Assembly (NCBI RefSeq): GCF_019100495.1
Contig: NZ_JAHRVA010000006.1
Location: 71,164 to 135,163, forward strand
Origin: Falsochrobactrum tianjinense
GTDB taxonomy: Bacteria > Pseudomonadota > Alphaproteobacteria > Rhizobiales > Rhizobiaceae
Reading direction: 5' to 3'
Length of the DNA: 64,000 bases
Part shown: piece by piece, positions 39,185-46,506 of the stretch
Numbering within the stretch: the stretch's first letter is position 1
How the letters are laid out: each line of letters begins with the position of its first letter
The notes under the pieces: generated by a model
The model's database searches: none
What the model was told of the DNA's origin: nothing
The model's input: the letters and a program-made list of their open reading frames with translations, nothing else
Position numbers and translations under genes: made by a program

Positions 39185-39213
39185 ATGACACTGCAATGAA
39201 AGCATCATGACGT
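39185..39213 (-). promoter_or_regulatory. Triple Pho-box array upstream of phnC
   Basis: On the minus strand ACGTCAT, CTTTCAT and GTGTCAT follow each other with exact 4-base spacers (11-base period), all ending TCAT. The PhoB consensus half-site is CTGTCAT. It lies 39 bases before the phnC start. Confidence 0.75.
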
Positions 39214-44528: not shown

Positions 44529-45140
44529 TCAGCCCTCCAGAGGTGTAATACGGGTTGTGCGGGGAAGTGCAGCAAGCGTCCCGTCACAGACGAGAACCAG
44601 ATCGACACCGAGCGGATATTGAGCACCGTTCTCGCGCCATTGCTCGATAAAGTCCTGCGGCAGACCATCGACATGAAACACACGCTCGCCATCTATGCCC
44701 GGCCCCTTCAGAGCGAAGCCCTGCCCCCCGCCCAGCGAAGCTACCGCAAGCACCACGGTCGTGGAGCGATCGGGGAATTCCGGTTCCCCTTGCGAAAATA
44801 CTGCAAGCTTTGGCAAAGCCGCGACATTGCCGACGAGAGCAAACTGCGCCTGAGAAGTCTCATCCACACGAGGCGCGCCGGTGTGAAACACAAGCCAGTC
44901 ACAGGCATTCCCGTCGGCCGCGATTTCAGCATCGCACCAGACGGTCGTGTCATGATCGAGCAATGTGGCAGCGACCGTACCAAGCTCGGCAGATAGCGGT
45001 GGCGGCGGCGTAGCGGCACGCAGCAACGGCTGGATACATCCGGGATTTGCCATCGCATGCATGACCGCATGAAACACCGACTGCGCCTCAGTGACCGGAT
45101 CGGCCAGACCACCTTCGAATACAGGAGAGGAATGAAGCAT
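44529..45140 (-). CDS. phnH: C-P lyase core subunit PhnH
   Basis: 203 aa. A PLP-transferase-like fold without PLP in the family, supporting the PhnGHI complex. The C-terminal region PGIDGERVFHVDGLP, then PLGVDLVLVCDGTLAALPRTT, is characteristic. Starts in a one-base overlap with phnG (TGATG). Confidence 0.92.
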   Translation of the reverse strand: MLHSSPVFEGGLADPVTEAQSVFHAVMHAMANPGCIQPLLRAATPPPPLSAELGTVAATLLDHDTTVWCDAEIAADGNACDWLVFHTGAPRVDETSQAQFALVGNVAALPKLAVFSQGEPEFPDRSTTVVLAVASLGGGQGFALKGPGIDGERVFHVDGLPQDFIEQWRENGAQYPLGVDLVLVCDGTLAALPRTTRITPLEG

Positions 45141-45640
45141 CAGTTGTCTCCCCGAACCATAGTGAAGAAATCGACTTTGGTGGCGGCGACCTCGCCGCGC
45201 ATTTTCGCATCGGCCTGTTCCATACGGCTGCGCAATGCATCGAGGACTTTCCGTTCCACCGCATCACGCCTGCCTTCATCAAGCCAGAGCGCATCGAACA
45301 AGGCGGCCAGACGCGCTTTCACCTTGTCTCGACCAAGGGCGTAGGAATGACCGACCGAACCATCAGCCAGACGAACCGTGGCGCGTGTCACGGTTGCCTC
45401 ACCCACGTTAAACGACGCTCCGCCACCACCCATGCGCCCGCGCAGCATCACCAGTCCGGTTTCGGGACCGCGAAGAATTTCAAATTCAGGCTGTTCCGGC
45501 CATTGCCCCCAGAACGTTTCGAGTTCTTCCGTGCTTGCCTGCGCAAGAACCGCCATGCTGGCCTGCCGCGCAATCTGCGTCGCATCCAGCGGCGCTTCAT
45601 TTCCTGCGGTCTTCTTGCCGCCGTCATCCGTTCTGTGCAT
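45140..45640 (-). CDS. phnG: C-P lyase core subunit PhnG
   Basis: 166 aa. The family core GLVMLRGRMGGGGASFNVGE is present. First gene of the degradation operon; its upstream region carries a Pho box and the presumed PhnF operator. The ORF is shared closely with phnH. Confidence 0.92.
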   Translation of the reverse strand: MHRTDDGGKKTAGNEAPLDATQIARQASMAVLAQASTEELETFWGQWPEQPEFEILRGPETGLVMLRGRMGGGGASFNVGEATVTRATVRLADGSVGHSYALGRDKVKARLAALFDALWLDEGRRDAVERKVLDALRSRMEQADAKMRGEVAATKVDFFTMVRGDN

Positions 45641-45683
45641 GAGTTTCCTGCCCTGTTCGGCCCCGTTGACTTATCATCTCAAA

Positions 45684-45703
45684 TTGTCTATTCATATAGA
45701 CAA
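45684..45703. promoter_or_regulatory. Probable PhnF operator between phnG and phnF
   Basis: Perfect 8-base arms TTGTCTAT and ATAGACAA with TCAT between them. It lies 44 bases before phnG and 54 before phnF. GntR/PhnF-type sites elsewhere have similar TATAGAC cores. It overlaps the phnF promoter and falls just downstream of the phnG promoter. Confidence 0.78.
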
Positions 45704-45712
45704 CTATACAAT
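45684..45712 (+). promoter_or_regulatory. phnF: Candidate sigma70 promoter of phnF
   Basis: TTGTCT (45684-45689), a 17-base spacer and TACAAT (45707-45712). The -35 and most of the spacer are the operator itself, which predicts repression of phnF by its own product. Confidence 0.6.
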
Positions 45713-45735
45713 AGCCTAATTTTTACACCCTGCCA

Positions 45736-45753
45736 ATGACAGGACGATGACAA
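45736..45753 (-). promoter_or_regulatory. Pho box upstream of phnG
   Basis: On the minus strand TTGTCAT-CGTC-CTGTCAT, nearly the PhoB consensus direct repeat. TAAAAA follows 10 bases later and can act as a -10, so the Pho box would replace the -35. It ends 3 bases before the phnF ATG on the other strand. Confidence 0.8.
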
Positions 45754-45756
45754 TCC

Positions 45757-46506
45757 ATGGCGAAGACAAGACGAATTGAGAGAAACAGCGGCGTAGCGAT
45801 CTGGCGGCAGATCGCCGATGAGATACGCAGCGATATAATGGCTGGCAAACTCCAGCCCGGCGCTCGCATGCCTGCGGAGATGGAGCTCGCGGAACGTTTT
45901 GGTGTCAATCGTCATACGGTGCGCAGCGCCATTGCCGCCCTGACACAGGAAGGCGTTCTGCGCGCCGAGCAGGGACGCGGCACTTTTGTTGCCAATGCCA
46001 GACGCCTCACCTACAGGATCGAACGACGTACCCGCATTTCGCAGGCACTGGCGATGCAGGTGAGTGAAACCAAAGGCATTCTGCTAGGTTCATCTATCGA
46101 GGCTGCAACTGCGGAAATCGCGCAGAACCTTGCCATCGACGAAGGCGCGCGGGTAACAAGGCTGGAAACCATGCATAGCGCCGATGGTCACCCCATATCC
46201 ATCGCTACCCATTGGATTGACGCCGAACGGTTCCCTACAATTGCCGAAGATTATACCGTAAACGCTTCTATGACGCTTGCTTTCAAGGCAGCCGATCTGA
46301 ATGATTATTTCAGAAAATCAACCATCATATCAGCTCATCATGCTGCCCCCGGCGACCTCCGATATTTGAAACTTTCGCCTGGAGCCATCGTGCTGACCGC
46401 GCGCGCAATCAATATCGATGCACAGGGAAGACCTGTTCAATACTCTCTGACACGCTTTTCCGCCGACCGCATGGAGCTTTCAATAGAGAGCGAAACAGTA
46501 CAATAA
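45757..46506 (+). CDS. phnF: GntR/HutC-type phosphonate regulator PhnF
   Basis: 249 aa. N-terminal GntR winged helix (RMPAEMELAERFGVNRHTVRSAIAAL, key parts AERFGVNRHTVR) and a C-terminal UTRA ligand-binding domain (RLETMHSADGHPISIATHWIDAERF, given by its ends). Divergent from phnG across the inverted repeat. Probably a repressor that senses a phosphonate or pathway intermediate; the signal is not known. Confidence 0.92.
   Translation: MAKTRRIERNSGVAIWRQIADEIRSDIMAGKLQPGARMPAEMELAERFGVNRHTVRSAIAALTQEGVLRAEQGRGTFVANARRLTYRIERRTRISQALAMQVSETKGILLGSSIEAATAEIAQNLAIDEGARVTRLETMHSADGHPISIATHWIDAERFPTIAEDYTVNASMTLAFKAADLNDYFRKSTIISAHHAAPGDLRYLKLSPGAIVLTARAINIDAQGRPVQYSLTRFSADRMELSIESETVQ

What the first reader, a model, noticed from the sequence alone, without database searches (positions are those of the whole stretch)
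45684..45753. phnF-phnG intergenic region: PhoB site, PhnF operator and both promoters in 70 bp
Seen: Pho box TTGTCAT-CGTC-CTGTCAT (minus strand, 45736-45753) followed 10 bases later by TAAAAA; perfect arms TTGTCTAT/ATAGACAA (45684-45703) about 10-29 bases downstream of the inferred phnG start; and TTGTCT-N17-TACAAT for phnF with the operator inside it. Prediction: phosphate starvation turns on phnG, and PhnF blocks phnG elongation and its own promoter until its ligand appears, an AND gate. PhoB control of phn operons and PhnF-type repressors are known; this arrangement is inferred.
Basis: partly seen in the sequence, partly recalled or inferred. Interest (0 to 1): 0.72.

Follow-up and report, generated by a model that had tools for sequence, protein, structure and literature searches.

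The report
Phosphonate operon's two-input genetic switch
A short stretch of DNA between two bacterial genes appears to let the cell break down phosphonates only when phosphate is scarce and, probably, a phosphonate is present; the parts are of known kinds, but their tight, widely conserved layout and an unusual repeat spacing are details worth testing.

Summary
The 20-bp palindrome (45684-45703) is the genome's only match with at most 2 mismatches; the Pho box (45736-45753, minus) is one of four 1-mismatch sites. Among 107 distinct divergent phnF-phnG regions the palindrome (at most 2 mismatches) occurs in 28/28 of the window's genus group, 29/29 of the rest of its family, 16/22 of other families of the order and 3/28 of other orders. 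In the genus group it lies 32 bp from the Pho box in 28/28, and TA stands 10 bp past the Pho box in 28/28. In 30 phnG loci, half-site pairs occur in 18/19 with phnF beside them and 0/11 without, so this is very probably the PhnF operator. PhoB-plus-PhnF control is known in kind. Binding, start sites and ligand are untested.

The parts
45684..45703 (.). PhnF operator core, TTGTCTA-N6-TAGACAA (GT-N12-AC), about +10 to +29 of the inferred phnG transcript
   Evidence: tracks phnF
45705..45711 (+). Third PhnF half-site TATACAA, 8 bp after the right arm (TAGACAA in L118, L120, L132, L134); overlaps the phnF -10 TACAAT
45684..45689 (+). Candidate phnF -35 TTGTCT (inside the left operator arm)
45707..45712 (+). 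Candidate phnF -10 TACAAT; 5 of 6 matches to TATAAT in 27 of 28 of the genus group
45666..45671 (+). Alternative phnF -35 TTGACT, 17 bp before TATTCA in the operator; TTGAC in 26 of 28 of the genus group
45720..45725 (-). phnG -10 TAAAAA (TAnnnAT in 28 of 28 of the genus group), 10 bp past the Pho box
45736..45753 (-). Pho box TTGTCAT-CGTC-CTGTCAT for phnG; at about +18 to +35 of the inferred phnF transcript
45140..45640 (-). phnG, first gene of the C-P lyase operon
45757..46506 (+). phnF, GntR-type regulator with UTRA domain
39185..39213 (-). Pho box of phnC: ACGTCAT, CTTTCAT, GTGTCAT at 11-bp pitch; no PhnF operator within 3 mismatches anywhere else in the window

Best explanation
The region is a composite switch for the C-P lyase operon. 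Phosphorylated PhoB binds the Pho box and recruits RNA polymerase to the phnG promoter when phosphate is short. PhnF binds a row of half-sites just downstream of the phnG start, which also covers the phnF promoter, and so blocks both genes until a phosphonate-related ligand releases it. Because each promoter lies inside the other gene's first transcribed bases, the two promoters should exclude each other, and PhoB bound at the Pho box should also hold down phnF. In the window's genus group phnC has its own Pho box without an operator, so uptake could start on phosphate starvation alone and admit the inducer. Shown by sequence comparison: site conservation, fixed spacing, link to phnF, 8-bp lattice, separate phnC Pho box. 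Inferred: protein binding, start sites, mutual exclusion, number of PhnF dimers, ligand.
For: Operator with at most 2 mismatches in 76 of 107 distinct divergent regions, by group 28/28, 29/29, 16/22, 3/28; only the 6-bp inner spacing, of 0 to 12 tried, gives this. Of 30 phnG loci, half-site pairs at gap 4, 12 or 20 in 18/19 with phnF (one of them the window) and 0/11 without; a Pho box with at most 3 mismatches in 15/19 and 4/11. Operator-to-Pho-box distance 32 bp in 28/28 of the genus group and 30-35 bp in the 20 of 29 family regions whose Pho box has at most 3 mismatches. TA 10 bp past the Pho box in 28/28, 19/20, 10/14 and 1/6 of the regions with such a box, by group. GT..AC gaps up to 30: 134 on the 4+8n lattice, 11 off it, over 107 regions; reversed half-sites 0 and 2. 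phnC Pho box (2-3 mismatches) at -53 in 11 of 12 genus loci, best operator match there 4-6 mismatches. PhoB encoded above the family cut-off; a Pho box also precedes a PstS-like gene.
Against: No binding, start-site or expression data. The Pho box has at most 3 mismatches in only 6/28 other-order regions, so the two-input layout is not universal. Operator-to-Pho-box distances of 17, 21 and 25 bp occur outside the family, so a block just past the start is not a fixed rule. L078 has phnF beside phnG but no recognisable operator. Some pitches are off the lattice: gap 29 in 5/29 family regions and in S. meliloti, AC-to-AC 17 in 5/29 and 9 in 4/29, and 19 and 27 in 6/28 each of the genus group; at least the gap-29 ones seem to be the TATAC of the phnF -10. 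In the genus group TA stands also 22 bp past the Pho box in 28/28, so offset 10 is not unique there. The link of PhnF residue 55 with the half-site base is strong in raw counts (Fisher 4.9e-6, best of 196 residues, 48 loci) but not after tree correction (4 supported independent pairs). Which of two phnF promoters is used is open.
Confidence: 0.72

Rival explanations
1. PhnF binds as one dimer that bridges the two outer arms (GT-N12-AC), with no lattice and no extra dimers; the third half-site is merely the phnF -10.
For: The outer arms are the best conserved positions, and the inner GT/AC letters are degraded in the window's genus group.
Against: Gaps of 4, 12 and 20 and same-strand pitches of 8 recur across groups; the third half-site is TAGACAA in L118, L120, L132 and L134, where the -10 match is only 3-4 of 6; other orders mostly show GT-N4-AC (18/28).
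Confidence: 0.35
2. PhnF blocks phnG by keeping RNA polymerase from binding or opening, not by stopping elongation; the operator is an ordinary promoter-overlapping operator.
For: With the third half-site the footprint reaches 45711, next to the inferred phnG start (45713) and -10; in family f35 loci the operator lies only 17 bp from the Pho box.
Against: In the genus group the core arms lie about +10 to +29, past the inferred start, at a fixed distance.
Confidence: 0.45
3. The palindrome is an RNA hairpin in the phnG leader (attenuator or stability element), not a protein site.
For: An 8-bp stem with a 4-base loop would lie in the inferred phnG leader.
Against: Outside the genus group 12 of 48 operators carry different letters at the M/K pair of the two arms, which breaks that base pair (counted from the rows); half-site pairs are absent in 11/11 phnG loci without phnF; an unpaired half-site lies on the same lattice.
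Confidence: 0.04
4. The conserved TTGACT (45666-45671) with TATTCA in the operator is the real phnF promoter, and TACAAT is only an operator half-site.
For: The position scores 4.82 of 6 against TTGACA over the 28 of the genus group; L120, L132 and L134 of the same family carry TTGACA at the same place.
Against: The matching -10 (TATTCA, TAGTTA and the like) is poor, while TACAAT is nearly invariant in the genus group; L008 and L100 lack TTGAC.
Confidence: 0.4

Closest known systems
Mycobacterium smegmatis PhnF / phnDCE (GntR-type repressor, divergent)
   Same: A PhnF of the GntR family, divergent from its target, represses it by binding two sequences in the bidirectional promoter region; the target rises on phosphate limitation (passages of review PMC7866108).
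   Different: There the target is a phosphate transporter; here it is the C-P lyase operon, while phnC has a separate Pho box. The original papers were not held.
E. coli phn operon (Pho box upstream of phnC, phnF within the operon)
   Same: Pho-regulon control of C-P lyase and a PhnF gene (passages of PMC10574752).
   Different: E. coli has one 14-gene operon (abstract line of PMC9947105 in the listing); here phnF is divergent and phnG and phnC each have a Pho box.
E. coli NanR on (GGTATA)3
   Same: A GntR-type repressor whose three dimers bind closely spaced repeats cooperatively (abstract and passages of PMC8012715).
   Different: NanR uses direct repeats and a 32-residue N-terminal extension, and is not of the HutC subfamily (recalled); multi-dimer binding of PhnF is untested.
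HutC-subfamily operators (GT-N4-AC, as in NagR and DasR) with weak extra boxes
   Same: Same half-site GTMTA (passages of PMC4494728); extra half-sites 7-12 nt from the site centre were reported for four HutC groups (its section 17, read whole). NagR DNA-binding domains pack side by side along DNA in a crystal (PMC4333415 section 14, read whole).
   Different: In the window the strong half-sites are 12 and 20 nt apart, on an 8-bp lattice, instead of 4.

Membership tests
PhnF (TIGR02325) | Match above curated cut-off | tested here: met
   330.7 bits against 156.8
PhnF (TIGR02325) | GntR wHTH plus UTRA domain | tested here: met
   PF00392 and PF07702 above their cut-offs
PhnF (TIGR02325) | Linked to phosphonate genes | tested here: met
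   phnG, phnH, phnM, phnD in the window by NCBIfam; two further frames sent in the same call matched nothing there
HutC-subfamily canonical operator | GT-N4-AC palindrome | tested here: not met
   Window gaps are 12 and 20 (L074); gap 4 occurs in 9/22 other-family and 18/28 other-order regions
PhoB-dependent promoter | Two 7-bp direct repeats at 11-bp pitch | tested here: met
   1 mismatch to CTGTCATN4CTGTCAT; the consensus is recalled
PhoB-dependent promoter | -10 about 10 bp past the box (distance recalled) | tested here: met
   TAAAAA in the window; TA at offset 10 in 28/28 of the genus group
PhoB-dependent promoter | PhoB encoded in the genome | tested here: met
   TIGR02154 334 bits, cut-off 296.2
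PhoB-dependent promoter | PhoB binding and phosphate-dependent expression | not testable with these tools
   needs footprint and reporters
NanR-like multi-dimer operator | Closely spaced regular repeats | tested here: met
   8-bp lattice, 134 gaps on and 11 off
NanR-like multi-dimer operator | Several dimers bind cooperatively | not testable with these tools
   needs EMSA or ultracentrifugation
AND gate | Expression needs both low phosphate and PhnF ligand | not testable with these tools
   ligand unknown; needs reporters

The most novel reading that the evidence does not exclude
Alphaproteobacterial PhnF assembles as a row of dimers on an 8-bp lattice of half-sites. Together with the Pho box it forms a reciprocal roadblock: each regulator sits inside the first transcribed bases of the other's gene, so PhoB-driven phnG and phnF transcription exclude each other and give a sharp, substrate-gated switch.
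Probability: 0.3. Interest if true: 0.62.

Novelty: new variant of a known kind. Interest (0 to 1): 0.42.

Why it matters
C-P lyase decides whether many bacteria can use phosphonates such as methylphosphonate or glyphosate (general knowledge), and how PhnF gates it is poorly defined. The comparison gives a concrete operator for PhnF across Hyphomicrobiales, a spacing rule that other GntR operators can be checked against, and a testable split between phosphate-only control of uptake and dual control of breakdown.

Tried and rejected
RNA hairpin: rejected because arm letters differ in 12 of 48 operators outside the genus group and half-site pairs are absent where phnF is absent. Inner spacings other than 6 (0-12 tried): none gives comparable matches. 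Co-evolution of PhnF residue 55 with the half-site base: strong raw association but only 4 supported independent pairs on the tree, so not used as proof. PhnF operator at phnC: not found. Extending the lattice beyond Alphaproteobacteria: five distant loci with phnG on the same strand (L220, L221, L222, L224, L234; 28-31% identity) show no half-site pair in the 300 bp upstream of phnF; their operator may lie elsewhere. Pho box of phnC in the rest of the family: inconclusive (3-4 mismatches in the 6 of 8 loci that have a phnC at 57-62% identity, and 3-5 on the opposite strand). Print: the rows listed (the best 2 to 20 of each) showed no paper on this operator; supplements of PMC4494728 could not be opened and RegPrecise was not searched, so an earlier prediction cannot be excluded. 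No structure was predicted.

Dropped or grouped by hand: L030 and L102 (partial phnF hit) and 20 duplicate regions among 127. The 28 of the genus group include L007, L016 and L023, which bear other or no genus labels (Paracoccus, 'Rhizobiales bacterium', Pseudochelatococcus) but were grouped by similarity; L025 went to the family, and L026-L032 (without L030) and L034 to the rest of the order. L049, whose phnF hit is a weak other GntR (39 bits), stays in the 107. Of the nine family regions without a Pho box of at most 3 mismatches, four (L109, L110, L125, L131) end at the phnF hit inside the likely Pho box (seen) and five have one of 4 mismatches at 33-34 bp. The 30 phnG loci are the 30 best matches among 222 genomes with a match.

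Full report
WHAT IS THERE. phnF (45757-46506, plus) and phnG (45640-45140, minus) are confirmed by family models. The nearest named relative of the window's PhnF found is Falsochrobactrum shanghaiense (83% identity). The genome itself is unnamed; its genus, as the tool groups genomes, also holds genomes whose phnF regions are identical to those of records named Brucella and Ochrobactrum.

CHANCE. The palindrome has no other match with at most 2 mismatches in 3.5 Mb. The Pho box is one of four 1-mismatch sites in the genome. I looked at the frames beside six of the 35 sites, two of which overlap: the overlapping pair precedes a PstS-like gene, one 1-mismatch site a gene resembling a Na/Pi cotransporter, one a substrate-binding-protein-like gene, one (L167) has no clear gene after it, and one is the site itself; gene names here are my reading of the proteins. 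A PhoB above the curated cut-off is encoded.

COMPARISON SET. I collected loci with PhnF or PhnG. tblastn found both genes in 129 loci; 2 with partial phnF were dropped, 127 were divergent, and 107 remained after removing duplicates. Groups: 28 in the window's genus group, 29 in the rest of its family, 22 in other families of its order, 28 in other orders (grouping by hand, see Tried and rejected). The divergent layout is therefore widespread, though the searches favoured the best PhnF matches.

OPERATOR. TTGTCTA-N6-TAGACAA with at most 2 mismatches occurs in 28/28, 29/29, 16/22 and 3/28. No other inner spacing from 0 to 12 behaves so. The most telling control: of the 30 best phnG loci (the window among them) have phnF beside them and 11 do not. 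Half-site pairs (GTMTA..TAKAC) at gaps 4, 12 or 20 are present in 18 of 19 and 0 of 11; the exception is L078. A Pho box with at most 3 mismatches is present in 15 of 19 and 4 of 11 (counted from the rows). The operator thus follows phnF; the Pho box does not need it.

EIGHT-BASE LATTICE. GT..AC gaps are 12 in 25/28, 25/29, 17/22 and 5/28 regions, 20 in 22/28 and 12/29, and 4 in 9/22 and 18/28, with shuffles at 0.00-0.22. Over gaps 0-30, 134 fall on 4+8n and 11 off it; reversed half-sites give 0 and 2. AC-to-AC pitch 8 occurs in 20/28, 10/29, 2/22 and 1/28, GT-to-GT pitch 8 in 1/28, 0/29, 5/22 and 8/28; but other pitches recur too (AC-to-AC 19 and 27 in 6/28 each, 17 in 5/29, 9 in 4/29; gap 29 in 5/29). 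At least one pair at gap 4, 12 or 20 is found in 27/28, 27/29, 20/22 and 19/28. In the window the 8-base units read GTCTATTC, ATATAGAC, AACTATAC: two strong outer half-sites and a third one 8 bp on. HutC-type operators are described as mostly GT-N4-AC (PMC4494728, passages), with weaker extra boxes 7-12 nt from the centre in some groups (its section 17). Isolated NagR DNA-binding domains were seen packed side by side along DNA in a crystal (PMC4333415 section 14), and three NanR dimers bind a repeat operator cooperatively (PMC8012715, abstract and passages). A row of PhnF dimers is therefore physically reasonable, but untested.

PROMOTERS. For phnG, TA lies exactly 10 bp past the Pho box in 28/28, 19/20, 10/14 and 1/6 regions whose Pho box has at most 3 mismatches; 28/28 of the genus group read TAnnnAT there. 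In that group TA also stands at offset 22 in 28/28, inside the third half-site. This puts the phnG start near 45713 and the operator core at about +10 to +29 (inference). For phnF, TACAAT at operator positions 24-29 matches TATAAT in 5 of 6 letters in 27 of 28 of the genus group but 2 of 29 of the rest of the family. There the inner bases read TTG at positions 8-10 in 23 of 29 and TA stands at 31-32 in 25 of 29, against 0 of 28 and 1 of 28 in the genus group (counted from the rows). So the phnF promoter seems to be TTGTCT-N17-TACAAT in the genus group and TTGAT-N17-TAnnnn elsewhere in the family; both use operator bases as -35. A second -35-like TTGAC at 45666 is kept in 26 of 28 of the genus group, so the phnF start is open.

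HOW IT LIKELY WORKS. PhoB opens phnG at low phosphate; PhnF on the lattice blocks phnG and itself until a ligand frees it. Since phnF's promoter bases lie in phnG's first transcribed bases and the Pho box lies in phnF's, one polymerase should exclude the other, and PhoB should lower phnF. These steps are inferred from geometry. In the genus group phnC has its own Pho box (2-3 mismatches) 53 bp before the coding match in 11 of 12 loci fetched (the twelfth, L204, has no close phnC in the fetched stretch) and no PhnF operator in the 160 bp upstream (best match 4-6 mismatches). Uptake would then need only low phosphate, and breakdown low phosphate plus inducer.

LIMITS. Related sequences are not independent. 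The residue-55 association fails tree correction. Spacing between operator and Pho box varies outside the family: 17, 21, 25 and 33 bp, and 48-50 bp in L028, L029, L031 and L032, whose boxes have 4 mismatches. I saw no wet evidence for this region in the listings of the print searches named under Tried and rejected. Verdict: a real, conserved, well-formed regulatory region of a known kind, with an operator geometry that is a new variant as far as I could see.

Noticed in passing
window 39185-39213 (minus): Three Pho half-boxes at 11-bp pitch upstream of phnC; a Pho box at the same place in 11 of 12 genus loci, without PhnF operator.
   Followed up: partly
window 45666-45671: TTGAC kept in 26 of 28 of the genus group between phnG and the operator; not on the 8-bp lattice; may be a second phnF -35.
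   Followed up: partly
L030, L102: phnF of a Brucella oryzae record (L030) and of an unnamed genus member (L102) gives only a partial best hit; one search lists the latter in two pieces in different frames, as if interrupted.
   Followed up: no
L007, L023, hit H1 (NZ_CP035515.1): PhnF 72-78% identical to the window's in records labelled Paracoccus, Pseudochelatococcus and a Haematobacter plasmid: transfer between families, or mislabelled contigs.
   Followed up: no
L214-L219, L223: In family f35 of the order (unnamed; Bradyrhizobium-like is only my guess) the operator lies 17 bp from the Pho box, which would place it over the phnG start.
   Followed up: no
L153: A locus from another order carries the exact TTGTCTA-N6-TAGACAA operator and a 3-mismatch Pho box 35 bp away.
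   Followed up: no
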